Below are positions 1-18,299 of a DNA stretch of 64,000 nt, one piece after another (within the stretch, counting starts at the first letter, position 1; each line of letters opens with the position of its first letter). The stretch spans positions 1-64,000 of the IMG/VR virus record IMGVR_UViG_3300028920_002946; one strand, written 5' to 3'. The notes beneath the pieces are model-generated. The model was given only the letters and a program-made list of their open reading frames with translations. It did no database searches and had not been told where the DNA came from. This stretch comes from a virus. The position numbers and the translations under genes were made by a program.

Positions 1-1197
1 CGAGGAACTCTGGCTCGTGATGTTCGACAGTCCCGAATCCCAATTCCCGTCATCCGCGCTCGCATCCGAACTCGCGTTGTTGTTCCCCGTCGCCGCGTCT
101 ATCTGGTCAAAGTCGGAATCGTTATCGAATCCGGCGTTGTTCTTGAGAGTGGCCGCCTGGATACCGCAATCCAGCCCGCAATAACAGTTATATGCCGTGC
201 AGTTCTCCACGCGCGAGGCTGCCGCCCCGGCCGTGAGGTAGAGAAAGATGCCGCCTTGTGCTATCCCGCCTTGGTCCCACACGGCGCAGTCGTGTATCTG
301 GTGCGACCCGTTTGTGGTCCCGGTGCAGATCCCGGTTCCTTTCTTCCCGTTCTTGTCTATGAGGCAGTTGTAAACCTTGAACAGGTAGCCGGTGGTCGGG
401 GTGGCCCCTGTAGTGACAGAATGGTAGTTGCTCGTCAGCGAGTATTGGGTGTAGACATACATGTCACGGAAGACAAATTGGCCGCTACCCTCCATATCGC
501 AGCTGAACATGAAGCCGTTGAAGTTGTGCGCGACCCGGTAGGTCGTGTCCGTCGGATCCCCGTAGTTCGGCTTCTCGGAGTAGGTGTTGAAAATGTTCCC
601 GTTCAAGTCCTCGGTGACGGCGGCCGTCGCGGTCTCCGTGGTCGACCCCTTGCCGACGTAGTTGAGGGTCCCGTTGAGGTCGCCCGTGTCCGAGTAGGCG
701 GCGCTCCACGTGGTGTAGTCCTGCCCGCTCCCCACATAGTAGGTCCCCGAGGTGCGCAGGTTGAAGTCCTTCACGCCCCTCCCGGCGTAGCCGTCGGCAT
801 CGTTGAAGATCGACGTGGTGAGGCCGTGGCCGCGCACGTCCAGAAGATCGACCGACTCGCCGCTGCGGAGGCTGGACTCCAGGCCGGCGATGCCCGTGGC
901 CGTCTCGAGCGCGGGCAGGTCGATGTACGCCGACCTCTCGCGCTTCACCACCCAGCCGGGCATGTTCTCCGCGTCCGGCTGGGACGCCTCCGGCACGGGC
1001 AGGAGAGCCTGCTGCACGGCGGGTTTCCAACTCGAGGGGGCGCGGAGGTACAGGTAGGGCACGCGGGCCTGCGGCGGGTACTCGGGCTGGAAGCCCCACT
1101 CGTCCGGGTCGATGTAGCAGACGGGCATCCCGTCCTTGATGCCGCGCGCGGCCTTCTTGTCCCCGACCTTCACGATTATGTCGATGTAGTCCGCCAT
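1..1197 (-). CDS. Beta-helix-like tail fibre/spike protein, 3' end cut by window
   Basis: The frame is open for all 399 codons from an ATG at 1197 down to base 1 with no stop, so the C-terminus lies outside the window. After about 120 N-terminal residues there is a Gly/Asn/Thr-rich stretch with recurring Asn-Cys steps (YNCLID, HDCAVWD, ENCTAYNC, KNNAGFD), the pattern of a right-handed parallel beta-helix, and it resembles the helix domains of the next genes upstream. It lacks their YVNT-AGGDGTTNAT cap; instead it opens MADYIDIIVK. Its start lies 2 nt after the preceding stop. Role inferred: receptor-binding spike or fibre, last of the adhesin array seen here. The start is supported by its position; enzymatic activity cannot be judged. 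Confidence 0.8.
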   Translation of the reverse strand, partial: MADYIDIIVKVGDKKAARGIKDGMPVCYIDPDEWGFQPEYPPQARVPYLYLRAPSSWKPAVQQALLPVPEASQPDAENMPGWVVKRERSAYIDLPALETATGIAGLESSLRSGESVDLLDVRGHGLTTSIFNDADGYAGRGVKDFNLRTSGTYYVGSGQDYTTWSAAYSDTGDLNGTLNYVGKGSTTETATAAVTEDLNGNIFNTYSEKPNYGDPTDTTYRVAHNFNGFMFSCDMEGSGQFVFRDMYVYTQYSLTSNYHSVTTGATPTTGYLFKVYNCLIDKNGKKGTGICTGTTNGSHQIHDCAVWDQGGIAQGGIFLYLTAGAAASRVENCTAYNCYCGLDCGIQAATLKNNAGFDNDSDFDQIDAATGNNNASSDASADDGNWDSGLSNITSQSSS

Positions 1198-1199
1198 GC

Positions 1200-1919
1200 T
1201 CAGCTCTTGTTGAAGTCGAACGAGAGGGAGGCGTTGGTGATGCTCTGCGACCCGTCTACCTCGACCCGCATTATCTCGCCCTTGCCCATCGATGTCGTGT
1301 CCCAATCCGAGATGTCCAAGTCCTGGTTTTTGATGCCGTTGACGATGTGCGGCCCGGTGAGCCCCGGGTGCATCTTGGAGGATGGCGGGAAGGCCGCGTA
1401 GGTGCCCTTGTAGATGTTGAAGTAGATGGTGCCCGTCTCCTCCGCCAGCACGGTCCAGTTCTGGAGCGTCAAGTCGAACGGCGCCCTGATATTGCCTTTC
1501 GTGCCGGACGATATGGCGCTCGAGCCGCCCTCGACGATGATGTTCATGGTGCCCGTGTAGCCGCCCTCGATGCCCCGGACGCCGGTGGCGCCGGATCCCG
1601 TCACGCCCACCGGGCCGGTCTCGCCCTGCGACCCCGTGAATCCGGCCTCTCCGGTGGCCCCCTGCGGCCCCGTCGCACCTTGGTCGCCCGTTATGCCGCC
1701 CTGCCCGGTGATGCCCTGGTAGCCGGTCAGCCCGAAGGTCCCGGTGTCCCCGGCGAGCCCCGTCAACCCCAGCGGGCCCGTTTCCCCCTGCGGTCCCGTG
1801 ACGCCCGAGACGGGGAATCCCACCTTGACCCACTTGTCGTCGGCCTCCGAGTATTGGTAGCGGGAGCCGTACGTCGTCTGATACTGCTCGCCGTTTGCCG
1901 GGCCGGTCGGAAATGCCAT
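1200..1919 (-). CDS. Collagen-like tail fibre protein with C-terminal head domain
   Basis: 239 aa. Residues 1-37 form a small domain (MAFPTGPANGEQY... DDKWVKVG), followed by Gly-X-Y repeats at about 38-120, many of the form G-x-T, typical of bacterial and phage collagen triple helices that lack hydroxyproline. Residues 121-239 are a globular head shared with the proteins at 5789, 3115 and 6470; shared signatures are TGPHI, DLSDW/DISDW and a C-terminal VTVSL-like strand. The architecture implies a homotrimeric fibre with a distal adhesive head. It starts at ATG 1919 in a 132-nt gap that carries one copy of the recurrent palindrome. Fibre role is from family knowledge; receptor unknown. Confidence 0.85.
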   Translation of the reverse strand: MAFPTGPANGEQYQTTYGSRYQYSEADDKWVKVGFPVSGVTGPQGETGPLGLTGLAGDTGTFGLTGYQGITGQGGITGDQGATGPQGATGEAGFTGSQGETGPVGVTGSGATGVRGIEGGYTGTMNIIVEGGSSAISSGTKGNIRAPFDLTLQNWTVLAEETGTIYFNIYKGTYAAFPPSSKMHPGLTGPHIVNGIKNQDLDISDWDTTSMGKGEIMRVEVDGSQSITNASLSFDFNKS

Positions 1920-1973
1920 TTCAGTCTCCCTGACTCTGCCAAAAGGTGCCGGGAAGGCGTCATCGACGCTCGG

Positions 1974-1994
1974 GGTGCGCCTTTCGGTGCACCG
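1974..1994 (-). other. Small hairpin in leader of collagen fibre gene
   Basis: The minus strand reads GGTGCACC-GAAA-GGCGCACC, an 8-bp stem with one A-C mismatch and a GNRA-type GAAA loop, between the palindrome and the start codon at 1919. No T-tract follows, so it is not a typical terminator. It may stabilise the leader RNA. Confidence 0.3.
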
Positions 1995-2012
1995 TACACG
2001 TTGGCTCCAGCA

Positions 2013-2027
2013 ATTAATAGACTATCA
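2013..2027. promoter_or_regulatory. Intergenic palindrome TAATAGNCTATTA, copy 1
   Basis: The plus strand reads ATTAATAGACTATCA, one mismatch from the perfect dyad TAATAG-N-CTATTA. It sits in the 132-nt gap after the stop at 2052 and about 95 nt upstream of the collagen-fibre start at 1919. It is one of at least seven copies, all in gaps upstream of minus-strand genes. Probably a promoter element or operator; not tested. Confidence 0.55.
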
Positions 2028-2051
2028 GGCTTTTCGGGGCGGCAGGGGGGT

Positions 2052-3104
2052 TTACACCAATCCGCTCTGTGTGCTCGCGGCGCCGAACCCCATCTTCGCC
2101 TTGTGGAACGAATATTGAAACGGCCCCGCGTCGCACACCAGGCCGTGCCTGTAGGCGCTGCGCATGCCGTCCACGGGGACGTTCGAGTCCGACGCGGGGC
2201 CTACCCCCGCCTTGATCAGCACCGAACCCGGCTTGAGGCGGAAGTCGCCGTCCTCCAGATAGTTGGGGTTGAGAAACTCGTTTCCCCAATCGCTGACCGG
2301 TATTGGATTCGTTCCGTCACCGTCATCGGAGGCGCAGTGGTCTATGACAACATTAGTTTCACCGACATGAATCCTGAAGTCATCACTACTGAAATAGAAA
2401 ACACTACAATTCTTAATCGTTACATTGCTTTGGTTAATCCAGAAGCCATACCCGCCCCCAGTAAGAATGTTGTTGTAGAAGAAAGCGGGTGTGTCATTGG
2501 ATGAGTTCAAATAAACAGGTGTAACAGTTCCTCCTGAACCACCATAGGACTGCATGACGTTATCATGGAAATACCATTTTCCTCCACTTGGGCTACCTGT
2601 GAGGAAGTCTTCTGTGCCTCCGTCCTTCGCCATTCTGAAGATACAGTTCTTGACCTCACAACCATCGATCCAGTTACCCGTCCATTGGAATAGTTCGTAC
2701 CGATTGTTGGTCATCGTAACTTGAAGGCCATCAAACACTATTCTGATCGGCTTCGTATCTGACCCGCCACATCCGAGAGCTATGTTTGAATTGTTGACAT
2801 TCAACCGATAGGTGCTGTCGTTCCAATGTCCTCCATGAAACCCGTCGGGTTCGGATCGATTCGCTTGGATAGTCAAGGTATAGCCAGAGCCGTCGAAGTA
2901 ATTCCAACCAGGGTCCCAATCCACTCGGTATTCGTCCTCGACCGACCCGCAACATAGCAGAAGGATGTCACTATCGTATAGTTTGTTGCGGAGGTTGTTC
3001 TCCGCCTGCGTCATCGTCGCAAAGGCACGATGGTCGCCTGTGGTGGCGTTGGTAGTACCGTCACCACCTGCAGTCGATGCTGTATTGACGTACCTGGTTA
3101 CCAC
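2052..3104 (-). CDS. Beta-helix tail fibre/adhesin protein (cap family)
   Basis: 350 aa from a GTG start at 3104; an AGAGG-type ribosome site lies upstream and the encoded start MVTRYVNTAS matches its paralogues. Residues 1-35 form the conserved cap (YVNTASTAGGDGTTNAT... RAFATM). Residues 60-270 show beta-helix rungs with IKNC, DGCEVKNC and DHCAS steps. The C-terminal module (DWGNEFLNPNYLEDGDFRLKPG) closes the helix. It is a close paralogue of 4729-5778, with long identical stretches and clustered differences. The central part is visibly more AT-rich than the flanks. Likely a trimeric receptor-binding or depolymerase-type spike; no catalytic residues can be assigned by eye. Confidence 0.85.
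   Translation of the reverse strand: MVTRYVNTASTAGGDGTTNATTGDHRAFATMTQAENNLRNKLYDSDILLLCCGSVEDEYRVDWDPGWNYFDGSGYTLTIQANRSEPDGFHGGHWNDSTYRLNVNNSNIALGCGGSDTKPIRIVFDGLQVTMTNNRYELFQWTGNWIDGCEVKNCIFRMAKDGGTEDFLTGSPSGGKWYFHDNVMQSYGGSGGTVTPVYLNSSNDTPAFFYNNILTGGGYGFWINQSNVTIKNCSVFYFSSDDFRIHVGETNVVIDHCASDDGDGTNPIPVSDWGNEFLNPNYLEDGDFRLKPGSVLIKAGVGPASDSNVPVDGMRSAYRHGLVCDAGPFQYSFHKAKMGFGAASTQSGLV
2114..2201. repeat. Direct repeat copy A (88 bp, identical to 4791-4878)
   Basis: The 88 bases here are identical to 4791-4878. Both encode the C-terminal closing module of the two beta-helix paralogues. Exact identity inside otherwise diverged genes implies recent duplication or gene conversion. Confidence 0.9.
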
Positions 3105-3114
3105 GTACTAGCCT

Positions 3115-4725
3115 CTACGTTTGGTGGCAGCCCAACGCCACCGTGACGCTCTCGGGGGAGTCCGACTCAATGACATTCAGCTGCATCCAATCCCCCGCCG
3201 CGCCGGTCGTCCCGGCCCAACCCGACAAATCGTAGTCGGCGTTCCTGAAAGCCTGTCCGATGTGCGGGCCCGTCGCCGACCCGTTCATGGAGAATGACGG
3301 GGGCCACGCGCTGAACGGGCCTATCCTCAAATCGGTGCGGATCGTCGTGCCGTCGCTCGACACCATCTCCCATGAATCGATCTGCAGATCATACGGCACC
3401 TGCAGCTGGCCCCCGATGCCGGTCGAGGGGTTGTTCATGACGAAGTTGAGGAAACCCGTCACCCCCGGGTCGGGGCCGGTCACGCCCTGCGGCCCCGTCA
3501 CGCCCGCGAGGCCGGTTACCCCGACCGGGCCTGTGGATCCGAAGGTCCCGACACCGGTCTCGCCCGTGGGTCCGGTGGGTCCCGGCACTCCCGTGTCCCC
3601 CGGCACTCCCGTGTCCCCTTGGACGCCGGGCACCGAAGCCCCGGTCGCCCCCGCCTGACCCGTCTCGCCCTTGCCGAGCGTGTCGGACTTCATCCAAACG
3701 CTGCGGTCGGAGTGGTAGACGTACAGGCTGCCGCTGGCCGTGCGGTGCTCCTGGCCGTCGTACGGGTCGGACGGGAAGGAGTAGTTCGGCACCGGGTTCT
3801 CGAAGGGCCCTATTGACGCTGTGCCGCCGGATCTGGCGTCCCCGACGATGTCGTCCGCGGGGACATCGGGGTCGGCGGAGGGCCCGATGCCGGCACCCTC
3901 GAGGTCGGAGCCGGATGCCAGCCTGTAGTCGATGCTCGCCACGTAGTCGGGGTTGTGGAACTGCTCGCCCCAATCCGATATGGTGACCGGGTTCGACCCC
4001 TCCCCGTTGGGCGTCGCGCAGTGGTCGACGACGACGCCCGTCCCGGAGAACACGCCCGCGTCGATTCTCGCGCAGTTCGTGACGTAGACGGTCCCGCTAA
4101 AGCGGGCCACCGGGTACGCCCAATTCACGAAGACGCAGTTCACCACGGATATGCCGCTGGCGTTAACCTGCACGCCGTTTGAACTGTTCGGCGTGTCCAC
4201 TTGGAAGACGCAGTTTTCGACATCGACGGCCCCGAAGTGGTCGTACCCCTTGATATTGACTGTTCGTACTATGCAGTTCCTGATCTTCGACCCAGAGAGC
4301 GCATTCGACCCGAAGGAGATGGCATGCCGGGTGTCGTTCTCCTGATATATCTGTATGCCCTCGACGATGAATATCCTGGAGGTGCCGTACGCGTTCTCGA
4401 TGCACGCCTTGCTGGACGTGTCGCATTGGATCCGATAGCGGTCGGTGCTCCAGACGCCGTCGTGCGCTCCGTTGGTGTCGTCCGGGTTGCCCCTGATGGC
4501 CATGGAGTAGGCGGCGTCGGTCGTCCACGATCCCCAGTTGTTGGCGTTCACCGTGTCGGCGGCCGCGCCGCAGCAGAGCACCTGCACGTCGTCCGAGACG
4601 GGAGACGAGTTGAGGGCCGTCATGGCCTCCATCAACGTGGCCCACGCACGGTTCCCGCCGCTGGTGGCGTTCGTGGTGCCGTCACCGCCCGCTGTACTCG
4701 CTGTGTTGACGTACTTGGTTATCAT
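3115..4725 (-). CDS. Fused beta-helix + collagen + head tail fibre protein
   Basis: 536 aa. Residues 1-310 are a beta-helix with the family cap (MITKYVNTASTAGGDGTTNAT) and closing module (GPSADPDVPADDIVG, GPFENP). Residues 312-350 (SFPSDPYDGQEH... RSVWMKS) match the N-terminal domain of the stand-alone collagen proteins. Gly-X-Y repeats run about 353-422 and the shared TGPHI-type head occupies 423-536. It therefore looks like an exact in-frame fusion of a helix-only gene and a collagen-only gene. Its ATG follows the preceding stop by 3 nt. Likely a receptor-binding fibre. Confidence 0.87.
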   Translation of the reverse strand: MITKYVNTASTAGGDGTTNATSGGNRAWATLMEAMTALNSSPVSDDVQVLCCGAAADTVNANNWGSWTTDAAYSMAIRGNPDDTNGAHDGVWSTDRYRIQCDTSSKACIENAYGTSRIFIVEGIQIYQENDTRHAISFGSNALSGSKIRNCIVRTVNIKGYDHFGAVDVENCVFQVDTPNSSNGVQVNASGISVVNCVFVNWAYPVARFSGTVYVTNCARIDAGVFSGTGVVVDHCATPNGEGSNPVTISDWGEQFHNPDYVASIDYRLASGSDLEGAGIGPSADPDVPADDIVGDARSGGTASIGPFENPVPNYSFPSDPYDGQEHRTASGSLYVYHSDRSVWMKSDTLGKGETGQAGATGASVPGVQGDTGVPGDTGVPGPTGPTGETGVGTFGSTGPVGVTGLAGVTGPQGVTGPDPGVTGFLNFVMNNPSTGIGGQLQVPYDLQIDSWEMVSSDGTTIRTDLRIGPFSAWPPSFSMNGSATGPHIGQAFRNADYDLSGWAGTTGAAGDWMQLNVIESDSPESVTVALGCHQT

Positions 4726-4728
4726 CTC

Positions 4729-5778
4729 TTACACCAATCCGCTCTGTGTGTTCGCCCCCGGAAAACCCGTCTTCGCCTTATGGAAAGAGTATTGAAACGG
4801 CCCCGCGTCGCACACCAGGCCGTGCCTGTAGGCGCTGCGCATGCCGTCCACGGGGACGTTCGAGTCCGACGCGGGGCCGACCCCGGCCTTGATCAGCACC
4901 GAGCCCGGCTTGAGCCGGAAGTCGCCGTCCTCCAGATAATTGGGGTTGAGGAACTCGTCGCCCCAATCGCTGACTGATATTGGATTCGTTCCGTAACCGT
5001 CATCGGAGGCGCAGCGGTCTACGACAACATTAGTTTGACCAACGGCGACTCTAATGTCCTCGCCAAATCCGAAAACAGTACAATTCTTGATAGTCACATT
5101 ACTCTGATATACACTGATCCCACGCCAACCTCTGGTTATAAGGTTGTTGTAGAAGTAAACAGGTGTGTCATTGGTTGAGTTCAAATAAACACTCTGGACA
5201 AGTCCTCCTGAACCACCATAGGACTGCACGACGTTATCATGGAAATACCATTTTCCTCCGCTTGGGCTACCTGAGATGAAATATTCATCGCCACCATCCA
5301 TCGCCATTCTGAAGATACAGTTCTTGACCTCGCAACCATCGATCCAATTACCCGTCCATTGAAACAGAACAAATCGATTGTTGGTCATCGTAACTTGAAG
5401 GCCATCAAACACTATTCTGATCGGCTTCGTATCCGACCCATTAAGAGGCATAGCTAAATTTGAGTCATTGACATTCAACCGATAGGTGCTGTCGTTCCAA
5501 TGCCCTCCATGGAACCCGTCGGGTTCGGATCGATTCGCTTGGATAGTCAGAGTATAGCCAGGGCCGTCGAAATAGTTGTAATCAGGGTCCCAATCCACTC
5601 GATATTCGTCCTCGACCGACCCGCAACAGAGCAGTAAGAGGTCAGAGTTGAACTGTTTGTTGCGAAGAGTACTTTCCGCCTGATCCATCGTTGCAAAGGC
5701 GCGGTGATCTCCAATGGTGGCGTTCGTGGTACCGTCACCGCCCGCTGTACTCGCTGTGTTGACGTATCTCGTTATCAT
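4729..5778 (-). CDS. Beta-helix tail fibre/adhesin protein, paralogue of 2052-3104
   Basis: 349 aa; ATG at 5778 preceded by AAGGGGAT, a good ribosome site. It shares the cap, rung pattern and C-terminal module with the protein at 2052-3104. Long blocks are unchanged (VEDEYRVDWDP, IQANRSEPDGFHGGHWN, KPIRIVFDGLQVTMTNN) while short patches differ, for example FYNNLITRGWRGISVY versus FYNNILTGGGYGFWIN. This fits a conserved scaffold with variable solvent-facing loops. A 10-nt gap separates it from the upstream collagen gene. Receptor binding is inferred. Confidence 0.85.
   Translation of the reverse strand: MITRYVNTASTAGGDGTTNATIGDHRAFATMDQAESTLRNKQFNSDLLLLCCGSVEDEYRVDWDPDYNYFDGPGYTLTIQANRSEPDGFHGGHWNDSTYRLNVNDSNLAMPLNGSDTKPIRIVFDGLQVTMTNNRFVLFQWTGNWIDGCEVKNCIFRMAMDGGDEYFISGSPSGGKWYFHDNVVQSYGGSGGLVQSVYLNSTNDTPVYFYNNLITRGWRGISVYQSNVTIKNCTVFGFGEDIRVAVGQTNVVVDRCASDDGYGTNPISVSDWGDEFLNPNYLEDGDFRLKPGSVLIKAGVGPASDSNVPVDGMRSAYRHGLVCDAGPFQYSFHKAKTGFPGANTQSGLV
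4791..4878. repeat. Direct repeat copy B (88 bp, identical to 2114-2201)
   Basis: Second copy of the exact 88-bp repeat, in the 3' part of the paralogous helix gene. The two copies lie about 2.7 kb apart in the same orientation and could mediate deletion or exchange of the intervening fibre genes. Confidence 0.9.
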
Positions 5779-5788
5779 GCCTATCCCC

Positions 5789-6466
5789 TTAAAGCGTCCG
5801 CGAGTACCCGAGGGACACGGTTACACTCTTGATGCCCGTGGCGCCCTGGATCAGGAACTGCACATAGTCCCCGGCCCCCACCGAGACATCTGACCAATCC
5901 GAGAGATCCGTGGCCTGTCCCTTAGTGCCTCCCGTGATGTGCGGCCCCGTCGCACCGGAGTTCATGGTCGCGATGCCGGGCCAATCGGAGTACGGCCCGC
6001 TCTTGACATCCGACCAAAAGAATCCCGTTTCCCGCGAAACCGCCTCCCACGAGTCGAGATCCATCTTGCATGGCACTTTCACGCTCGCCTGGAACCCCGG
6101 CGCGAGGTAGTCGCCGTTCCCGTCGAACGTCATGCCGAGGACACCCGTCGCCGACCCATAGTAGCCCTGCGGCCCGGCCGGGGAGTATCCCGTCTCGCCC
6201 TGCGGCCCGGCGACACCCGTCGCGCCCGGACCACCCGTGGGGCCGGCGGCGCCCTGCGGGCCGTCGATTCCCGTGGCGCCCTGGTCGCCCGTCGGGCCCT
6301 GCGGGCCTGTGGGGCTTTGCGGGCCGGTCGCCCCGCGCAGCCCGGCCTCGCCCCGCAGCTCGGTGCCGTATTTCACCCATCGGTTGCGGTCGGAGCGGTA
6401 GACGTACCTCGACCCGTACTTCGTGGTGTGCGTCTGCCCGTCGTTCGGCCCTGTAGGGAATGCCAT
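5789..6466 (-). CDS. Collagen-like tail fibre protein with C-terminal head domain
   Basis: 225 aa, same plan as the protein at 1200-1919: N-terminal domain [13 protein letters not shown]... RNRWVKYG, Gly-X-Y repeats at about residues 40-108, then the TGPHI/DLSDW head ending [11 protein letters not shown]. It lies between a fused helix-collagen gene and a helix-only gene. The stop is 3 nt before the next-downstream ribosome site. Predicted trimeric fibre; receptor unknown. Confidence 0.85.
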
Positions 6467-6469
6467 GCT

Positions 6470-8140
6470 CTATCTCTTCTCGTAGTGCTTCAGGGAAATT
6501 GACGCCTGTCTGACATCTGACTCGAGAACGTTCACGTGCAGATACTCGCCAAACGCCCCCGTGGTGCCCGACCAATTGGAAAGATCCGACGAACTATCCT
6601 TGAACCCGTCGATGACGTGCGGGCCGGTGTCCCCCGCGTTCATGAGCGCCGCGGAGGCCCAACCGTCGTACGTGCCGCGCGAAAGCTCGGTGACGAACGT
6701 CCCCGTTTCCGGCAGCACCGTCTCCCACGCCCCGATCATAAGATCGTACGGCAGCCTCATCTGCGATCGGTATCCAACCTGTATGGAGGTGTCGCCCCCG
6801 TCGAACGAGAACTGTAGGATCCCCGTGACGCCCGGCGGGACGCCGAGCTCCCCCCGGACTCCCCCGGTGCCATCAAGCCCGGTTTCGCCCTGCATCCCCG
6901 TGGCGCCGTCAAGGGCGGCGCCGGTCAGTCCCTTTTCCCCCTGCACCCCCTGCGCGCCCGTCACGCCTTGGACCCCTTGGACGCCCACCTCCGGCGCCCC
7001 GGTCGCGCCCTCCCCCCCGGTCGCGCCCGCGTTGGATCCCTGCGCCAGGCTGTACTTCACGTAGTGCTTGGACGGCGAGCAATCCGTCAGCCAGGACTGC
7101 CCGAACGATGACGTGTGCAGATCGCCGTCGGTGCAGGTGGGGTATTGGTTCTCAAACGGTCCGACGCTCGCCGTGCCGCCCGACCTCGACTCCCCGACGA
7201 TGTCGTCCGCGGGGACGTCCGAGTCCGCGGAAGGCCCGACCCCGGCGTCCCTGAGGTGCGAACCGAGAGACATCCTGTAGTCGAGATCCGCCGTGTAGCT
7301 CGCGTTGTAGAACTCGTCGTCCCAATCCGATATGGAAACGGGGTTAGTGCCCTCGCCGTCGTCTGCGGCGTTGTGATCTACCGTGGAGGGTCCGGACAGG
7401 CTCAAATCGTCACTGCAGTTGAGGATTGAGCTGTTCTTAATCGTTGCCGTGCAGTCGCTGTGGGTGTAAATCCCCGTGCTCAATGAGTCCAGCACGTTGT
7501 TGTAGAAGTCCAAGCGGATAGTGCCCCCGGCGGTGCTGATGCCCTGTCCCGCATTCGACACATACAAATTCGTGAAGACGTTGTTGCGCACCACCATCGT
7601 TGCGTTGAGGTTGGCCGCATCCTCCGCGCGAAAACAGCTATAATTCGTGACGTTGTTGCTCCACTTGAACAGCGTCTTTTCGCACGAGCTTCCGTCCGAC
7701 AGCCTCGTGAACGTTATTCCGTAGGCGCCTCCCCCTGCCGTCCTCGAACACAGGACTTGGACGCCCTCCACATGATATTCTCTGGATTGGTAGCTGTCCC
7801 TGTGGCAGTTGAAATAGATGCCGTACTGCGAGTTGGCGTTGTCGAAGGTGTACTTCGAGTCGTCCCAAACGCCCCCATGCGCCCCGTTCGCGTCATCGGG
7901 GTTGCCCCTGACGGTGAGGCTGTACCCCGATTGGATCGTCCCCGGGCGGAATTGGGGAATCGAAGAGTCAACGGCATCGCCGCAGCACAGAACCTCATAG
8001 TCATCGTTTACGGGCTGCGCCGCGCGTATCTGCTCCTCCGCCTCCTGCAGGGTCGCGAAAGCACGGTTCGCCCCCGACGTGGCGTTCGTGGTGCCGTCAC
8101 CGCCCGCGCTGCTCGCCGTGTTCACGTATCTCGTTACCAT
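6470..8140 (-). CDS. Fused beta-helix + collagen + head tail fibre protein
   Basis: 556 aa, second fused architecture. Residues 1-325 form the helix with the MVTRYVNTASSAGGDGTTNAT cap, internal rungs (VRNNVF, DFYNNVL, IKNSSILNC) and closing module (DVPADDIVGESRSGG). Residues 330-367 match the collagen-protein N-domain, Gly-X-Y repeats run about 368-443, and the head spans 446-556 (TGPHV, SSDLSNW). ATG at 8140. Its 5' end and upstream flank are repeated nearly exactly at 10205-10327. Likely receptor-binding fibre. Confidence 0.87.
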   Translation of the reverse strand: MVTRYVNTASSAGGDGTTNATSGANRAFATLQEAEEQIRAAQPVNDDYEVLCCGDAVDSSIPQFRPGTIQSGYSLTVRGNPDDANGAHGGVWDDSKYTFDNANSQYGIYFNCHRDSYQSREYHVEGVQVLCSRTAGGGAYGITFTRLSDGSSCEKTLFKWSNNVTNYSCFRAEDAANLNATMVVRNNVFTNLYVSNAGQGISTAGGTIRLDFYNNVLDSLSTGIYTHSDCTATIKNSSILNCSDDLSLSGPSTVDHNAADDGEGTNPVSISDWDDEFYNASYTADLDYRMSLGSHLRDAGVGPSADSDVPADDIVGESRSGGTASVGPFENQYPTCTDGDLHTSSFGQSWLTDCSPSKHYVKYSLAQGSNAGATGGEGATGAPEVGVQGVQGVTGAQGVQGEKGLTGAALDGATGMQGETGLDGTGGVRGELGVPPGVTGILQFSFDGGDTSIQVGYRSQMRLPYDLMIGAWETVLPETGTFVTELSRGTYDGWASAALMNAGDTGPHVIDGFKDSSSDLSNWSGTTGAFGEYLHVNVLESDVRQASISLKHYEKR

Positions 8141-8182
8141 GTGCTAAAGCTCTCCCCTAGAAATCCGCCCCGAACCATATGG
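8062..8182. repeat. Cassette-flanking direct repeat, left copy
   Basis: About 121 bp covering the 5' end of the fused fibre gene, its leader and the last codons of the next gene upstream (encoding WFGADF). It matches 10205-10327 with few differences, one of them a C-tract of 5 here versus 6 there on the plus strand. The pair flanks the propeller-helix gene and the short relic. Confidence 0.88.
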
Positions 8183-10070: not shown

Positions 10071-10284
10071 AGGACCAACCCTCCTTGTAGCACCCATACA
10101 TCCCCGATGCCGCGCAGTTTTCCGAGATGTAATCGTACATGTCGGCGGTCACGGTGCCGCCCGATTGTATCACGGCAAAGCCGTGCCCGACCGAACTCGA
10201 CAAGCACGGTTCGCCCCCCGATGTGGCGTTCGTGGTGCCGTCACCGCCCGCGCTGCTCGCCGTGTTCACGTATCTCGTTACCAT
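10057..10284 (-). pseudogene. Truncated helix-cap relic (75 aa), probably frameshifted
   Basis: The first 23 residues are the family cap MVTRYVNTASSAGGDGTTNATSG, then the sequence departs (GEPCLSSSVGHGF...) and stops after 75 aa with no rungs or head. Compared with 6470-8140, a run of five Gs on the minus strand has become six, shifting the frame exactly where the proteins diverge; removing one G restores ANRA but soon meets a stop. The ORF has a normal ribosome site (GGGGGAGAG) and its end overlaps the propeller gene, so it may be translated and couple translation downstream. Most likely a recombination relic; a functional small protein cannot be excluded. Confidence 0.6.
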
Positions 10285-10327
10285 GTGCTAAAACTCTCCC
10301 CCTAGAAATCCGCCCCGAACCATATGG
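10205..10327. repeat. Cassette-flanking direct repeat, right copy
   Basis: Right copy of the repeat at 8062-8182. It covers the 5' end of the relic ORF, its leader and the last codons (WFGADF) of the LamG gene. Recombination between the copies would remove about 2.1 kb carrying the propeller-helix gene and the relic, leaving both neighbours intact. Confidence 0.88.
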
Positions 10328-11363
10328 CATTGGGGGGCGCGGTATATTCACCAGAGGATGCGAAACTTGCGGCGTTCTTTTGATTCTCATACTCGGTGGC
10401 GATCTCTTCGTCGCTCATCACGTGGTCCATGACAACCAGTTCGTCAACCCTACCGTTTAGGTATAGTTGGCTTGAACCGGATCGGCTGTATTTGCCGATA
10501 AATACCGTGGCACTCTCATCAGAAGACATCCCTAAGTCACCAAACCACTTCCCGTTATCGACCGAGTTCGACCAAAAGGATAAGGTTTTCTTCACTCCGT
10601 TTATGTACATGTTGTACGAATCGCCGTCAGAGGTCAGCGCAATGTGAAAAAACTCATCCTCCGTTGGTACGTAATCCGAATATCCAAGTATGTAGTTACC
10701 TCCAAACGCACCGTCAACTAAGCGCCATACGAAATACATATTGTAATTATTGACGGTATTATAGGCTAGATAAAAGTAAACGCTTGTGGAGTTCATTTTT
10801 GTCAGAATAAAAATCGCACCGGGCACTACTGTGTTGTAGCGGACCCACGCCTTGATCGTGCCCCGGTCACTCGTGAGGTGCTGGCGAAGATCGGGAACCT
10901 CAACGAAACCGTCCCCTGCAAACTCCACAGCATCATTTATCTGGCCCTCAGCTTCCGAGGCGTTTGTGAGCGAGCTTGCCTCATCGTTCGATGAGGAGTC
11001 CGATGCTCCGCTGTCTACATCCTGATAGTGGTGTACGAGCTGGGCGTCCCTGGCATCCCACACCCCCACATCGTTGGACCTTTCATCCCCTCCGTAATGG
11101 CACAGTATAGCCGTATCCTTCGTGGAGGATACTGAAGGTATGTTGACCCATGCCTCCACCTTCTCGGAGTCGCTGTCGAACAGGACTATTTCACGGTCAA
11201 GTTCAGTAACATTTGCAGAGTCGTAGAACCTGATGCCCTGCTTTGTCCCGGCCCAGAAATCATCAGGGATCCCAAGCATCTCCTCATTGAAGAGAAAGGC
11301 GTAATTGGTCAGATTGCCCGACACCTTCGTGTGGTCAATCGTTATTTGAAATATAGAACTCAT
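10302..11363 (-). CDS. DUF2341 + LamG-like lectin domain adhesin
   Basis: 353 aa. Residues 1-95 match the DUF2341 pattern (NYAFLFNEE, GIRFYDSANVTELDREI, VEAWVNIPSV, ILCHYG). Residues 145-335 look like a concanavalin-A/LamG jelly roll (VEFAGDGFVEVPD, TIKAWVRYN, FFHIALTSDGDSYNMYING, GRVDELVVMDHVMSDEEI). The C-terminal WFGADF tail is the same as that of the propeller-helix protein, probably because the shared repeat runs through both gene ends. This pair of domains is common in surface and fibre proteins that bind carbohydrate. The coding sequence is more AT-rich than neighbours, suggesting separate origin. Role as lectin-type adhesin is inferred. Confidence 0.85.
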   Translation of the reverse strand: MSSIFQITIDHTKVSGNLTNYAFLFNEEMLGIPDDFWAGTKQGIRFYDSANVTELDREIVLFDSDSEKVEAWVNIPSVSSTKDTAILCHYGGDERSNDVGVWDARDAQLVHHYQDVDSGASDSSSNDEASSLTNASEAEGQINDAVEFAGDGFVEVPDLRQHLTSDRGTIKAWVRYNTVVPGAIFILTKMNSTSVYFYLAYNTVNNYNMYFVWRLVDGAFGGNYILGYSDYVPTEDEFFHIALTSDGDSYNMYINGVKKTLSFWSNSVDNGKWFGDLGMSSDESATVFIGKYSRSGSSQLYLNGRVDELVVMDHVMSDEEIATEYENQKNAASFASSGEYTAPPNAIWFGADF

Positions 11364-11394
11364 CTTTACGCCCTAGAAATATTGCCCATACCAA

Positions 11395-13851
<2,457 letters not shown>

Positions 13852-13865
13852 TTGGCCGCCCTCAC

Positions 13866-14594
13866 TTATACCGTGTCCTGGACGTTGTCCTCAGAGTCGT
13901 CCACGGTGTCGATCCACGTGTCCATGCTGCTGTCCACCACGTCCTGAACGTACGAGGCCAGGCTACTCTGGTACGCCGGGACGGAACTGCCCTCGGGCCC
14001 CTTCACCCCCGTGGCCCCCTGCACCGCGAACCCTCCAAGGCCCGTGTGGCCGCGCGGGCCGGTCAGCCCCATATAGCCGGTCAAGCCGCCGCCCCCGGTG
14101 ACCCCCGGGAAGCCCGTGGACCCCCTTGGGCCCGTCGCGCCCCTCGCCCCGCGAAGGGTGAAGTTGCCGTACCCCCTGTACACCTCGATGTCCCCGGCCG
14201 TGACCGGGAGCATCGCGCTCAAGTCCTCCGACCCGTCGTGGCGCAGCCTCACCAGCATCAGCGGCAGCATCCCCGACAAATCCGGGAAGGTCTTCACGAC
14301 GCCGAAGCTGCGCCTGTTCATCGCTATGCTCGGCACCACCTCCACGGCGCCGGCCTCGTCGAGGCAGACCAGCACGTACATCACGTCGCCGCGGTTGTTG
14401 AACACCCGGCGCGACGACGCCGCCATCCGGGCCGCGACCGCACGCGGTATGTCGATGCGGACATCCCCGTACCGCACCCAATGGTCGCCGACGACCACCA
14501 TGCCGCCCTTGGCTGACGCGGTGTCTTCGGCGCGGAGGGAGTCGTCTCTGACCTTAAGGCCGAAATCCCTCTTGTTCTTGGGTATTATCGCCAT
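13866..14594 (-). CDS. Short collagen-like fibre with virion-anchor domain
   Basis: 242 aa. Residues 1-150 form an anchor domain shared with the next two collagen fibres upstream; common elements are a GxVVVxxxWVxY strand, [18 protein letters not shown], a PL(M/V) strand, a DGSEDL turn and YRGYGNF. Gly-X-Y repeats run about 151-205, and an acidic tail ([16 protein letters not shown]) ends the protein. It starts at ATG 14594, 36 nt after the preceding stop, with a palindrome copy in between. Likely a short fibre or connector; no obvious receptor-binding head. Confidence 0.82.
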
Positions 14595-14621
14595 TCGCGT
14601 ACCCGTCTTGAATGCGCGGCT

Positions 14622-14636
14622 ATCAATAGACTATTC
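14622..14636. promoter_or_regulatory. Intergenic palindrome TAATAGNCTATTA, copy 2
   Basis: The plus strand reads ATCAATAGACTATTC, matching the dyad at 11 of 13 core positions. It overlaps the stop codon of the gene ending at 14631 and lies about 30-40 nt upstream of the ATG at 14594. The short distance fits a promoter serving that gene. Confidence 0.5.
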
Positions 14637-15290
14637 CGCCGCCTGGAAAAAGGATGTCAGCGGCACGTGCACCTGCCAGTTGATGCCCGTCATGCCCCGC
14701 ACGCCCGTCTCGCCCCGCGGGGCGACGGGCTGCGGGCCCGTGTGCCCGGCCATACCGGACGCGCCCAAGGCCCCCCTGTCCCCCTCCGGCCCGGTCGCGC
14801 CCTGGGGTCCTGTCTCGCCCGCCACGTCGCTGTCGACGCCGGTTATGCCCTTCCGCCCGGCGTCGAGGACGTTGCCCGCGCCGTTGAAGTACTCCAAATT
14901 CTCGTTTCTCAGCGGCAGATAGCCGAGGTTGAGGTCGTCCGACCCGTCCTGGACCGCCACGACGCCGACCAGGGGCACGATGTCGAAGGCGACCGGGCGC
15001 GGCACCGACCGCACGCTCGTGAACGGCACCTGCCTGCCCTCCACGACCTTGATGCCCTCGTCGAGATCCAGCCCCACCATGAGGTAGACGGCGTAATTCC
15101 GGTTCTGGAAGAACCTCGTGCGGGGCGGCACGACGGCCCGGCCGATGTACGCCGACAGCCTGAACAGCACCGCGTCGTAGTTGACCCAGCTGTTGTCGAC
15201 GACCACCGAACCCGCCTCTATGCGCACCGAGTCGTCGGAGTAGCCCGGGGTCGTCCCCGCCGTCACCTGTGCCGATCTTGGCTTGAGCAT
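14631..15290 (-). CDS. Short collagen-like fibre with virion-anchor domain
   Basis: 219 aa. The frame stays open further upstream, but I choose ATG 15290 (MLKPRSAQVTAG) because AGGGGAAGG precedes it and it begins 8 nt after the previous stop. Residues 1-140 are the shared anchor domain (SVVVDNSWVNYDAVLF, RTRFFQNRNYAVYLMVGLD, AFDIVPLVGVVAVQDGSDDL, YFNGAGN). Gly-X-Y repeats follow to about 205, then a short hydrophobic end. Paralogue of the genes at 13866 and 17232. Structural fibre or connector, inferred. Confidence 0.82.
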   Translation of the reverse strand: MLKPRSAQVTAGTTPGYSDDSVRIEAGSVVVDNSWVNYDAVLFRLSAYIGRAVVPPRTRFFQNRNYAVYLMVGLDLDEGIKVVEGRQVPFTSVRSVPRPVAFDIVPLVGVVAVQDGSDDLNLGYLPLRNENLEYFNGAGNVLDAGRKGITGVDSDVAGETGPQGATGPEGDRGALGASGMAGHTGPQPVAPRGETGVRGMTGINWQVHVPLTSFFQAAE

Positions 15291-15298
15291 GCCTTCCC

Positions 15299-16003
15299 CT
15301 AGTCGAAGATCAGAGACGGCCCCGCCGGCCGCCGGAACCCGTTCTCGCCCGGCGACGAGCCGGACTGCACGTAGCACCTGACGCCGTTCGGGAGTATGTT
15401 GGTCAAACAGTCGCCCACCTTGGGCATGTGGGCGAGTATCTCGTCGACCTGCGGCGGCGCGATGTCGTACGTGTACAGCGTGGCCTCGCCCTGCACCACC
15501 GTTATGTAGGCCGCCTTCGCCTCCGTGTCCTGCCTCCCCACGGCGTTCGTGACCAGGAGCGTGACGGTGTACGTCCCCGGCTGGTCGTAGACGTGCGTCG
15601 GGCTCTCCAGCGTGGACGTGCGGCCGTCGCCAAACGTCCAGAGCCACGAGACGATGGGGTTCGACGACGTGCTGGTGTCCGTGAACTTCACGCTCAGGGG
15701 GGTGTAGCCCGTCACCTTGTTGGCCGAGAAGTCGGCGACCGGCGTGTCAGCGTAGACATCGATGTAGTCGATCTTGGTCTCGTCGTCGCTGCCGTCGGCG
15801 TTGAACGAGTCCAAGGTGACGGTGTACGTCCCCGCGCCCGTGTACGTGTGATACGGGTTCTGCTCCACGCCCGTGGGGCTTCCATCCCCGTAGTCCCAAT
15901 ACCACCCGGTCGGGGAGTTGGTGGAGAGGTCGATGAACGTGACGCCCAGCGGCTCTATGCCCGTTACTGGATAACCTTCAAAATCAGATATTGGTGCGGC
16001 CAT
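15299..16003 (-). CDS. Two-PKD-domain adhesin with unknown C-terminal domain
   Basis: 234 aa. Residues 1-85 and 88-170 are PKD domains, each with the signature WxWxxGDG...P.HxYxxxGxYTVTL (YWDYGDGSPTG / HTYTGAGTYTVTL; WLWTFGDG / HVYDQPGTYTVTL). The last 65 residues (PPQVDEILAHMPKVGDC... GPSLIFD) are unassigned. PKD domains are Ig-like modules of surface and secreted proteins and probably aid attachment or extend the fibre. A 93-nt AT-rich gap precedes it; the ATG at 16003 follows AGGGGTAGGA. Confidence 0.85.
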   Translation of the reverse strand: MAAPISDFEGYPVTGIEPLGVTFIDLSTNSPTGWYWDYGDGSPTGVEQNPYHTYTGAGTYTVTLDSFNADGSDDETKIDYIDVYADTPVADFSANKVTGYTPLSVKFTDTSTSSNPIVSWLWTFGDGRTSTLESPTHVYDQPGTYTVTLLVTNAVGRQDTEAKAAYITVVQGEATLYTYDIAPPQVDEILAHMPKVGDCLTNILPNGVRCYVQSGSSPGENGFRRPAGPSLIFD

Positions 16004-16096
16004 TCCTACCCCTGTTATACATCTATTGACCCTTGAATCTAGTCATCTATCTAATGCCATATATTCAAAAAATTCAATATATTAGAAATATTATAG
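16004..16096 (-). promoter_or_regulatory. AT-rich intergenic segment, probable promoter region
   Basis: 93 nt of strongly AT-rich DNA in an otherwise GC-rich module. The minus strand contains TATAAT just after the upstream stop, two TTGAAT repeats separated by TTT, and at 16079-16093 a weak relative of the recurrent palindrome (ATATTAGAAATATTA). No convincing -35 box at standard spacing from TATAAT. A promoter for the PKD and short-fibre genes downstream is likely, exact start unknown. Confidence 0.45.
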
Positions 16097-16567
16097 CTAT
16101 TCATTCTTCCGGATCTTCGAACCCAACTCGACGTTGTAGTTCCCGTACGCCCCATAGACATGGGACGGCCCCGTCGCGCAGGAGTGCAGCGAGGCGTCGC
16201 CGAAGTCCCAATCCCAATCGTAGAACTCGTACCCCGTGGGCGCGGAACTCGTGTTTGTGAACGAGGCCGTCACCGGGGGTTCGCTCTCCTCATTGTAGGA
16301 GGCCGAGAAGGAGAGTTCGCCCACCCGTATCCAAGCGCGCATTATCACCGACGAACTGGACCCGCCCGGGGCGTAGGCGGTCACGACAACCGTGTGATAT
16401 CCCGCGGTCGTGTAGACGTGCGTGGGATTCTGGACGGCGCTCGTGGCACCGTCTCCGAAATCCCACACGTACGAAAGCCACGTGCCGGACAGGACGGTGA
16501 CGCCGAAGTTCACCGTAAGCGGGGCCGCCCCCAACACCACATCCGCCGTAGGTCGTATGTCTGCCAT
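16097..16567 (-). CDS. PKD-domain adhesin (two PKD-like repeats)
   Basis: 156 aa. The first PKD domain (residues 5-80) has YVWDFGDGATSAVQNP and THVYTTAGYHTVVVTA; the second (about 85-150) has YDWDWDFGDASLHSC and HVYGAYGNYNVEL and ends abruptly in SKIRKNE. The abrupt end one strand early may mean C-terminal truncation. The frame ends at a TAG inside the AT-rich gap. Ten nt separate its start from the upstream stop. Confidence 0.82.
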   Translation of the reverse strand: MADIRPTADVVLGAAPLTVNFGVTVLSGTWLSYVWDFGDGATSAVQNPTHVYTTAGYHTVVVTAYAPGGSSSSVIMRAWIRVGELSFSASYNEESEPPVTASFTNTSSAPTGYEFYDWDWDFGDASLHSCATGPSHVYGAYGNYNVELGSKIRKNE

Positions 16568-16577
16568 CGGCTATCAC

Positions 16578-17222
16578 CTAGTCAAGGACGCCCGCCATCG
16601 CGCGCGTCTCGTAGTAATACTCCCGCAAATCCCTGTCGCCGAGCCATATCTTGAACTCATCTATCTTCAGCGTGCTGTTCGGCGCGAGTCGGAAGACGTT
16701 CGAGTTCAGGGCCGGCGGGGATCCGTTCACGGACTTGGCCACGGACAGGGCGCGCCTGACCGTCGAGTAGGTGCCGGCGTACATCCCGTCCGCGCCCGCG
16801 TGGAACTCAACCAGGACCCACCGACCGACAGCCGTCACGGGATCGGCGGATCTGTGGACGTAGTTGTAGTCCTCGTACACGAGCCTGAGGTTGGAGTCGA
16901 GGCGGAATCTCCAATACTCCGTGTCGGAGTAGCTGACCCCCTCGGCTATGACGAAATCGGGTCGAGGATGGTTCTCGTTGACCACCACATAGCCCGATCT
17001 CGTCAAGGTGTCCTGCGACGAGGCGTCCTCGACCACCAACGTCACATCGTACTCACCGGGGAGATAGGTGTGGTTCACGGCCGTGAGGTTGCCGTCCACC
17101 GACGTTCCGTCGCCGAATATCCACTTGCGCGACACTATCGTGCCGACGGAGGCGTCGTTGAACGTAACGGTGACCAAGCCGTCGCCCACCCTGTTCGTCG
17201 CTGTGAACCCCGCTGTCGCCAT
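16578..17222 (-). CDS. PKD + LamG-like C-terminal domain adhesin
   Basis: 214 aa. Residues 1-80 are a PKD domain (RKWIFGDGTSVDGN, NHTYLPGEYDVTLVVEDASS). Residues 90-214 resemble the second half of a LamG/concanavalin-like fold (WVLVEFHAGADGMYAGTYS, LKIDEFKIWLGDRDLREYYYETR). It starts 9 nt after the upstream collagen-PKD gene. One of four consecutive or near-consecutive PKD-bearing genes. Binding role inferred. Confidence 0.8.
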   Translation of the reverse strand: MATAGFTATNRVGDGLVTVTFNDASVGTIVSRKWIFGDGTSVDGNLTAVNHTYLPGEYDVTLVVEDASSQDTLTRSGYVVVNENHPRPDFVIAEGVSYSDTEYWRFRLDSNLRLVYEDYNYVHRSADPVTAVGRWVLVEFHAGADGMYAGTYSTVRRALSVAKSVNGSPPALNSNVFRLAPNSTLKIDEFKIWLGDRDLREYYYETRAMAGVLD

Positions 17223-17231
17223 CGCCCGCCC

Positions 17232-18299
17232 CTACGGCTGCACTATCAGCTTCGTCTTGTCCATGTACCCGGCCACGTTCGTGGCCCTCAGCTTCACCAA
17301 ATGCTCGCCCGTCGTCACCGTCGCCGTGAATATCTCGGCCGTGGACACGGGCGCGCCATCCATCGTCCATTGGAACGAGTCGGGGAAGTAGGAACACCTC
17401 TCCGAGAACCGCAGGACGCCGGTCACCCCGTTGACCCCCGTGTAGTAGAAGTCGGACTCGGGCTTGATATCCACCCTCACCCACGCCTGCAGCACTCCAG
17501 TGAACCCCGAGAAGTCGACGTACGCGTCATGCTCGTACGACGAGTAATCCCCTTGGTTGACCACCGAGTGGCAGTTGTCCACAATTCCCGTTTCCCTCGT
17601 GTACGAGGAGGTCAGATCCGACCCGGTGACGCCGAGGCCCGTGGCGGACCACGTGCAGTCCCTGGCGCGAGCCGAGTAATCCGTTTGCACCTCGCCGTCC
17701 GACTTGAATTTCATGTACATCAGCAGGTCGAGATCCGGGTACACGCCCGTCACGCCCCCGACGCCCTGCATGCCGGTGACGCCGACACCCGTGGGGCCGC
17801 CATCTCCCGTGACGCCCTGCCACCCGTCCATGCCGGTCCAGCCCTGCGCCCCCGAATGGCCCTGCCACCCCGTGGGGCCGAGCGGCCCCTGGAGGCCCGG
17901 TTCCCCGGTCACGCCCCCGTCGCTTATGGTGAAGCACGACATCCGGGAGTATTCGTTGACCCTGACCACCGAGTTGCCGCCGAGCGACTGCAGGACCACA
18001 AACTGGGCCACGGGCACGAGGTTCGGCAGAACGCGCGACGTGGCCGAGGATATAAACCTGGTGGACAGGGCAACCCGGTCGTAAACCAAGCGGCCCGACT
18101 CTACCTCGTAGTACACGTTCACGACGGCGTAGTGGCCCTTCTCGGACGGCAAGCTGAATATGCCCCGCCGCTGGATGGGCACAACCACCTTTCCGATCGG
18201 CACCACGCGGTCGTTGTAGAGTATGTTGCCCAAATCGGCGACATAATCAACCGTGCCGTCCGCGTTCCTGCGCTCCGTGACCGTGTTGGTCCTTACCAT
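17232..18299 (-). CDS. Anchor + collagen + lectin/PKD-like tail fibre
   Basis: 355 aa. Residues 1-128 form the anchor domain shared with the two short collagen fibres downstream (GHYAVVNVYYEVESG, LVPVAQFVVLQSLGGNS, EYSRMSCFTISDGG). Gly-X-Y repeats span about 129-186. The C-terminal part has a LamG-like stretch (LLMYMKFKSDGEVQTDYS, YVDFSGFTGVLQAWVRVD) and ends in a PKD-like segment (SFQWTMDGAPVS, EHLVKLRATNVAG). ATG at 18299 lies directly after the preceding stop. Likely a receptor-binding fibre fixed to the baseplate by its N-domain. Confidence 0.84.
   Translation of the reverse strand: MVRTNTVTERRNADGTVDYVADLGNILYNDRVVPIGKVVVPIQRRGIFSLPSEKGHYAVVNVYYEVESGRLVYDRVALSTRFISSATSRVLPNLVPVAQFVVLQSLGGNSVVRVNEYSRMSCFTISDGGVTGEPGLQGPLGPTGWQGHSGAQGWTGMDGWQGVTGDGGPTGVGVTGMQGVGGVTGVYPDLDLLMYMKFKSDGEVQTDYSARARDCTWSATGLGVTGSDLTSSYTRETGIVDNCHSVVNQGDYSSYEHDAYVDFSGFTGVLQAWVRVDIKPESDFYYTGVNGVTGVLRFSERCSYFPDSFQWTMDGAPVSTAEIFTATVTTGEHLVKLRATNVAGYMDKTKLIVQP

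What the first reader, a model, noticed from the sequence alone, without database searches (positions are those of the whole stretch)
1..18299. 18-kb array of shuffled adhesin cassettes
About 15 consecutive genes mix a limited set of modules: beta-helix with YVNT cap, collagen rods, a shared TGPHI head, a shared anchor, PKD, LamG, DUF2341 and Asp-box propellers. Helix-only and collagen-only genes alternate with two genes (3115-4725, 6470-8140) in which the same two units are fused at the same boundary. This looks like an evolving library of receptor-binding proteins rather than one fixed fibre.
Basis: partly seen in the sequence, partly recalled or inferred. Interest (0 to 1): 0.75.

Follow-up and report, generated by a model that had tools for sequence, protein, structure and literature searches.

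The report
Jumbo-phage adhesin operon capturing cassettes
A row of fibre genes next to the tail baseplate of an uncultured jumbo phage consists of a fixed set of slots, shared in the same order by all relatives found, and an outer zone where foreign adhesin genes have recently been captured and spliced at conserved ends, which shows how large phages may rebuild their host-recognition gear.

Summary
But the 18 kb is not one shuffled library. (1) 13866-18299 (anchor+collagen genes gP, gL, gK; PKD genes gO, gN, gM) is a fixed spine behind a Baseplate_J gene. The same order occurs in five other lineages at roughly 30-52% identity, and anchor trees group by orthologue. There, variation means display domains swapped on, or genes inserted between, constant slots. 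(2) 1-13851 is a variable distal zone. Its first gene (gJ) recurs in two relatives, but the YVNT-helix and TGPHI-head genes occur in none of the six related records. Four genes (gC, gE, gH, gI) have foreign composition (GC3 about 0.60 against 0.87±0.04). Splice marks sit at module ends: a 136-bp direct repeat (95% identical) brackets gH and leaves an orphaned helix start; synonymous-site identity is confined to helix caps; GC3 steps sharply at the C-cap in gC and gE. The five helices form one clade, so the zone grew by capture, duplication and cap-to-cap recombination. No reverse transcriptase or resolvase was found; a RecA-family protein was. The principle is known from T-even and Ackermannviridae fibres; this architecture is a new variant. 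Virion incorporation and receptor binding are untested.

The parts
22719..26090 (-). gR, Baseplate_J-like baseplate wedge protein; fixes the array next to the baseplate
   Evidence: Pfam PF04865 E 1e-16; matches the annotated 'baseplate wedge subunit' of Tunturi_5 and Bacillus phage G; same place in five relative lineages
18301..22716 (-). gQ, 1471-aa protein with PSII_BNR repeats, first gene of the conserved block
   Evidence: 48-58% identical in five relative lineages, always next to gR; Pfam PF14870 E 1e-25
17232..18299 (-). gP, spine slot: N-terminal anchor + collagen + C-terminal domain
   Evidence: orthologue at the same place in G001, G003, G004, G005/6, G007, 32-40%; orthologue clade 100/100
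16578..17222 (-). gO, spine slot: PKD plus C-terminal domain; carries a 620-aa N-terminal extension in relative G004
16097..16567 (-). gN, spine slot: two PKD; a LamG-like domain is fused behind it in G003, G004 and G007, and sits on the next gene in G005
15299..16003 (-). gM, spine slot: constant C-terminus (..GFxRxxGPxLIFD), swapped N-terminal part (PKD here; Asp-box propeller, BspA-like, or giant PKD-rich in relatives; none in G007)
14631..15290 (-). gL, spine slot: anchor + collagen
   Evidence: 39-52% in all five relative lineages; orthologue clade 98/97
13866..14594 (-). gK, spine slot: anchor + collagen + short C-tail; a PKD domain is inserted behind the collagen in relatives
   Evidence: six-genome alignment
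11395..13851 (-). gJ, first gene of the distal zone: own N-terminus + long collagen with internal repeats
   Evidence: Pfam Collagen 1e-64; N-terminus at the same place in G007 (E 1e-15) and on another body in G003 (E 6e-5); internal 492-nt repeat 92%
10302..11363 (-). gI, DUF2341/LamG gene of foreign composition, ends PPNAIWFGADF
   Evidence: GC3 0.59 against 0.87±0.04; Pfam
10202..10337 (-). junction repeat copy 1 (136 bp): 3' end of gI, stop, ribosome-binding region, start and N-cap of a helix gene
   Evidence: 94.9% identical to 8059-8192
10057..10284 (-). orphan 75-aa ORF: YVNT N-cap that shifts frame and runs out; remnant of a helix gene
8157..10097 (-). gH, propeller + YVNT helix chimera of foreign composition, bracketed by the junction repeats
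   Evidence: GC3 0.61; Sortilin-Vps10 4e-9
8197..8441 (-). helix C-cap of gH, 86.5% identical in DNA to gG's C-cap (7140-7384)
8059..8192 (-). junction repeat copy 2: 3' end of gH, stop, start and N-cap of gG
6470..8140 (-). gG, fused helix + collagen + TGPHI head
5789..6466 (-). gF, linker + collagen + TGPHI head
4729..5778 (-). gE, helix-only; foreign core (GC3 0.48), high-GC3 C-cap, N-cap matching gD
5715..5778 (-). N-cap of gE, 93.8% identical in DNA to N-cap of gD (4662-4725)
3115..4725 (-). gD, fused helix + collagen + TGPHI head
2052..3104 (-). gC, helix-only duplicate of gE (84% DNA), homology from start codon to stop codon and no further
1200..1919 (-). gB, linker + collagen + TGPHI head
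1..1191 (-). gA, start of a further gene cut off by the record end; no recognised family

Best explanation
The array is the tail-fibre/adhesin operon of an uncultured jumbo myophage. Its baseplate-near part is a constant set of fibre subunits (slots gP-gO-gN-gM-gL-gK) onto which different display domains are swapped during evolution. Its outer part (gJ onward) is a variable zone. There, foreign adhesin genes are captured, duplicated and spliced by homologous recombination at conserved module ends: the YVNT N-cap, the helix C-cap and the gene-end/gene-start junction. Shown: fixed synteny, domain swaps and insertions between relatives, foreign composition of four genes, and splice marks at caps and junctions. 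Inferred: that phage RecA-type recombination does it, that the proteins are on the virion, and that they bind host surfaces.
For: Synteny: gR-gQ-gP-gO-gN-gM-gL-gK in the same order in six lineages; the anchor tree of 18 rows splits into gP (100/100) and gL (98/97) clades away from gK. Swaps: gM keeps its C-terminus but has different N-terminal parts; a PKD is inserted in gK in four of six; the LamG-like domain sits on gN or on the next gene; extra genes lie between slots, including a papain-like protease in G007. Capture: GC3 0.59-0.61 in gC, gE, gH, gI against 0.87±0.04 in 15 other late genes. Splicing: 136-bp junction repeat at 94.9% bracketing gH with an orphan N-cap. Synonymous codons identical at the gD/gE N-cap 17/19 against 35/89 elsewhere (p 7e-5), gG/gH C-cap 51/67 against 38/80 (p 6e-4), while the otherwise recent duplicates gC/gE are saturated at the N-cap (codons 1-50: 19/39 against 198/241, p 2e-5). 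GC3 step near codon 268 in gC and gE (permutation p 0.002 each, the floor of the test). gC/gE homology runs exactly start to stop. RecA family at 145196 of the record; no reverse transcriptase or resolvase. Published precedent that conserved 5' ends of spike genes allow exchange (PMC11414711).
Against: No close relative with the gA-gI zone was found, so gain and loss of those particular genes is read from one contig. The only closer contig (80-84% to gR/gQ) stops before the array. The spine shows that part of the array is not shuffled. Two near-identical records (1 difference in 40 kb) show no movement, but may come from the same site. Most distal-zone genes carry no recognised anchor, so how they would sit on a fibre is unknown. 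The orphan N-cap could also result from a simple deletion.
Confidence: 0.72

Rival explanations
1. A fixed multi-fibre apparatus: all genes are stable, specialised subunits descended vertically by old tandem duplication, and similarity at caps is only protein-level constraint on the helix fold.
For: True for the spine: same order and orthologues in six lineages. The five helices form one clade.
Against: Cap identity is at synonymous sites, and gC keeps the N-cap protein (92%) with saturated synonymous codons, so the protein does not force the DNA. The 136-bp repeat runs through a stop codon and non-coding DNA. GC3 of 0.6 in four genes and a step inside gC/gE. The helix and TGPHI-head genes are missing from all relatives examined.
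Confidence: 0.15
2. Programmed diversification: a diversity-generating retroelement or a site-specific invertase/shufflon reshuffles the genes.
For: Multiple similar cassettes next to each other; head domains vary.
Against: No RVT_1 and no resolvase in the 182-kb record; every array gene is on one strand; repeats are direct, gene-sized and of different ages. The record may be incomplete, and tyrosine recombinases were not searched.
Confidence: 0.04
3. The distal zone is a metagenome assembly chimera: low-GC genes from another phage were joined at shared caps by the assembler.
For: The composition change coincides with repeats; single contig; the array is at the contig end.
Against: Low-GC genes alternate with resident ones over 10 kb (gI, gH low; gG, gF high; gE low; gD high; gC low; gB, gA high), which would need many separate errors. 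Repeat copies differ by 5% or more and gC/gE by 16%, so they are not the identical stretches at which assemblers jump. gJ is found at the same place in G003 and G007.
Confidence: 0.07

Closest known systems
[quoted passage not shown] Tetart, Desplats, Krisch 1998, cited in PMC11414711 and PMC10408124)
   Same: Short conserved segments at module edges mark recombination points around variable adhesin parts.
   Different: Here the edges are beta-helix caps and gene-end/gene-start junctions in an operon of many genes, and whole foreign genes are captured beside a constant slot set; gp37/gp38 homology was not specifically tested.
Ackermannviridae branched tail-spike complex (four tsp genes, conserved 5' ends; PMC11414711)
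   Same: Several adhesin genes in a row, conserved N-terminal assembly parts with exchanged receptor domains, and recombination between neighbouring genes giving deletions and truncations, comparable to orf75.
   Different: More genes (at least 16), collagen rods, three paralogous anchors each fixed as an orthologue, and variation that can also be N-terminal on a constant C-terminus (gM).
Conserved DNA motifs flanking O-antigen tailspike receptor domains in lytic phages (PMC10408124)
   Same: Conserved DNA on both sides of the exchanged domain, proposed there as recombination hotspots.
   Different: There a spike gene region; here a multi-gene zone with intragenic composition steps and a bracketed captured gene.
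Jumbo myophages Tunturi_5 (Acidobacteriota host, PMC11924767) and Bacillus phage G
   Same: Homologous baseplate wedge and a shared domain of gQ.
   Different: No homologue of the collagen/anchor spine or helix genes in the Tunturi_5 tail region; gK and gG have no match in the phage collection.

Membership tests
Adhesin locus evolving by homology-guided module exchange (T-even / tail-spike type) | conserved DNA at the edges of variable segments, beyond what the protein requires | tested here: met
   synonymous-site tests and 136-bp junction repeat
Adhesin locus evolving by homology-guided module exchange (T-even / tail-spike type) | different display domains on a constant structural part in relatives | tested here: met
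   gM, gK, gN across six lineages
Adhesin locus evolving by homology-guided module exchange (T-even / tail-spike type) | exchange changes host range | not testable with these tools
   no isolate
Ackermannviridae branched tail-spike complex | N-terminal assembly domain shared by all spike genes | tested here: not met
   anchor shared by only three genes, gP/gL/gK; XD/TD domains themselves not searched
Diversity-generating retroelement target | reverse transcriptase in the genome | tested here: not met
   no RVT_1 in the record, controls positive; record may be incomplete
Invertible / shufflon-type fibre switch | serine recombinase and gene segments on both strands | tested here: not met
   no Resolvase match; all array genes on the - strand
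Phage G / Tunturi_5-type jumbo myophage | homologous baseplate wedge and neighbouring tail proteins | tested here: met
Phage receptor-binding proteins | present in virions and binding the host surface | not testable with these tools
   only position behind Baseplate_J and the domain types speak for it

The most novel reading that the evidence does not exclude
The operon is a dedicated cassette-capture site: a constant docking scaffold (gP, gL, gK anchors) followed by a landing zone that opens with gJ. Conserved helix caps and gene junctions act as general landing sequences for foreign adhesin genes, and the short gK C-tail, present in exactly the three lineages that have gJ behind gK and absent in the three that do not, is the connector for the outer fibre set.
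Probability: 0.25. Interest if true: 0.75.

Novelty: new variant of a known kind. Interest (0 to 1): 0.58.

Why it matters
The well-studied cases of changed host recognition swap the tip of one fibre or a few spikes. This clade keeps a constant row of slots and varies what hangs on them, with recent captures whose splice points can be read to within a few codons. It gives a concrete, testable picture of how large uncultured phages could gain many adhesins at once, and of which stretches (helix caps, gene junctions, gM C-terminus, gK tail) are the reusable connectors.

Tried and rejected
A single-protein scan with gE found nothing. gK and gG have no match in the phage collection. The IWFGADF gene end is not a general motif: no exact match in viral contigs. 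The gR scan of genome contigs gave no relative. The gL anchor model is poor (pLDDT 53) and its fold search has no match below E 0.001, so no anchor fold is claimed. Independent double fusion of gD and gG was considered and not preferred, because they are full-length homologues with sister heads (weak support); trees of the helix front and C-cap separately do not resolve gD/gG/gH. Selection on translation start as the cause of N-cap DNA identity was rejected, because gC has saturated synonymous codons there. Comparing the near-identical records G005 and G006 for population-level movement was uninformative: one difference in 40 kb.
Full report
What is there. The window is the first 64 kb of a 182,677-bp virus record. 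In 1-18299 there are 16 genes on the - strand plus one remnant, directly behind gQ (18301-22716) and gR (22719-26090, Baseplate_J). I name the genes gA to gP from left to right; transcription runs from gP to gA. The fused genes gD (3115-4725) and gG (6470-8140) are exact. gA is cut by the record end, so the array is longer than seen.

The array has two parts. Relatives were found with gR (G001, G003) and, decisively, with an alignment of gP (G004, G005, G006, G007). In all of them the order is gR-gQ-gP-gO-gN-gM-gL-gK. Identity to the window is 45-52% for gR, 48-58% for gQ and roughly 30-52% for the fibre genes. The three anchored paralogues gP, gL and gK are older than the clade: in a tree of 18 anchors gP (100/100) and gL (98/97) are separate clades from gK. 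This part is fixed, not shuffled.

Variation hangs on these slots. gM keeps a C-terminus ending ..GFxRxxGPxLIFD but has in front of it PKD (window), Asp-box propellers (G001, two copies), BspA-like repeats (G003), very long PKD-rich parts (G004, G005) or nothing but its PKD-like stem (G007). gK has a PKD inserted behind its collagen in four of six lineages. A LamG-like domain is fused to gN in G003, G004 and G007, but sits at the end of the next, 1621-aa gene in G005 and is absent in G000 and G001. Extra genes stand between slots, among them a papain-like protease in G007. The names Asp-box, BspA-like and LamG-like for parts of relatives rest partly on my reading of the sequences, not on a Pfam match for each.

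Behind gK lies the distal zone. In G001, G004 and G005/6 gK is followed at once by other tail genes. In G000, G003 and G007 it is followed by gJ, weakly but positionally conserved (E 6e-5 in G003, 1e-15 in G007). The YVNT-helix and TGPHI-head genes are in none of these relatives, as far as their contigs reach (G007 ends inside gJ). YVNT helices are, however, widespread in other viruses: 36 loci, alone or fused to other C-terminal parts. The five helices of the array form one clade apart from a sample of those (99/98), so the zone expanded in place.

Foreign genes and splice marks. GC3 is 0.59-0.61 in gC, gE, gH and gI against 0.87±0.04 in 15 other late genes. Inside gC and gE GC3 jumps from about 0.5 to above 0.8 near codon 268, at the start of the helix C-cap (p 0.002 each). 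A C-cap block of 245 bp is 86.5% identical between gG and gH although the rest of the helices is far more different. gD and gE share their first 64 bp at 94%, at synonymous sites too (17/19 against 35/89 elsewhere, p 7e-5). gC and gE, duplicates at 84% over the exact length of the gene, are saturated at just that N-cap. So gE looks like a foreign core with a resident-type N-cap and a high-GC C-cap.

The clearest mark is the junction repeat. The 136 bp at 10202-10337 and 8059-8192 are 94.9% identical. They run from the last codons of the upstream gene (IWFGADF) through stop, gap and start into the N-cap of a helix gene. The second copy opens gG. The first copy opens a frame that shifts in a G-run and ends after 75 aa: an orphaned helix start. 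gH, the propeller-helix chimera, lies between them. I read this as capture of gH at the junction, with a crossover in the shared cap. A deletion after duplication is an alternative for the remnant, but not for the repeat.

Statistics and limits. Of 16 pairs tested by a permuted segment scan of synonymous identity, gG/gH (p 0.0005), gE/gG (0.0025) and gD/gE (0.003) stand out; after Bonferroni correction for 16 pairs these are about 0.008, 0.04 and 0.05. The 136-bp repeat and the GC3 contrast do not rest on these tests. The record is a metagenome contig with the array at its end; reads could not be examined. The closest contig (80-84%) stops before the array. Two records with one difference in 40 kb show stability over whatever time separates them.

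Mechanism. A RecA-family gene is in the record; no reverse transcriptase or resolvase was found. Homologous recombination between short conserved ends is the simplest agent. Published work shows this for tail-spike genes with conserved 5' ends, including truncations after adding a gene (PMC11414711), and proposes conserved motifs around receptor domains as hotspots (PMC10408124). That the proteins are on the virion and bind hosts is inferred from their place behind the baseplate and their domain types only.

Verdict. Observation confirmed; interpretation partly supported. A new variant of a known kind: a constant multi-slot adhesin scaffold with domain swapping, plus an outer zone of captured and spliced cassettes.

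Noticed in passing
window 13866-14594 and L025:7450-8430, L088:847-1833: The short C-tail of gK (QDxxD...W...) is present in exactly the three lineages with gJ behind gK and absent in the three without; n is small.
   Followed up: partly
L088:4052-4954: Papain-family cysteine protease (PF00112, E 2e-16) inserted between gO and gN in relative G007.
   Followed up: no
window 45233-46573: Tail-region protein with Tlde1/YkuD-type domain (PF10908, E 4e-11), a peptidoglycan-acting domain type in the tail module.
   Followed up: no
record G000 139462-139966 and 140984-141488 (outside the window): 505-bp direct repeat at 81% identity outside the array.
   Followed up: no
record G000 near 67.1-67.5 kb (outside the window): A further PKD-containing stretch outside the array (tblastn of gM).
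   Followed up: no
L014:12561-15242 and homologues in G004 and G006: A helicase-like gene of relative G001 carries an extra segment of about 300 residues, missing in the G004 and G006 homologues, that reads like an intein; a related stretch seems to sit in the DNA-polymerase-like gene of G004.
   Followed up: no
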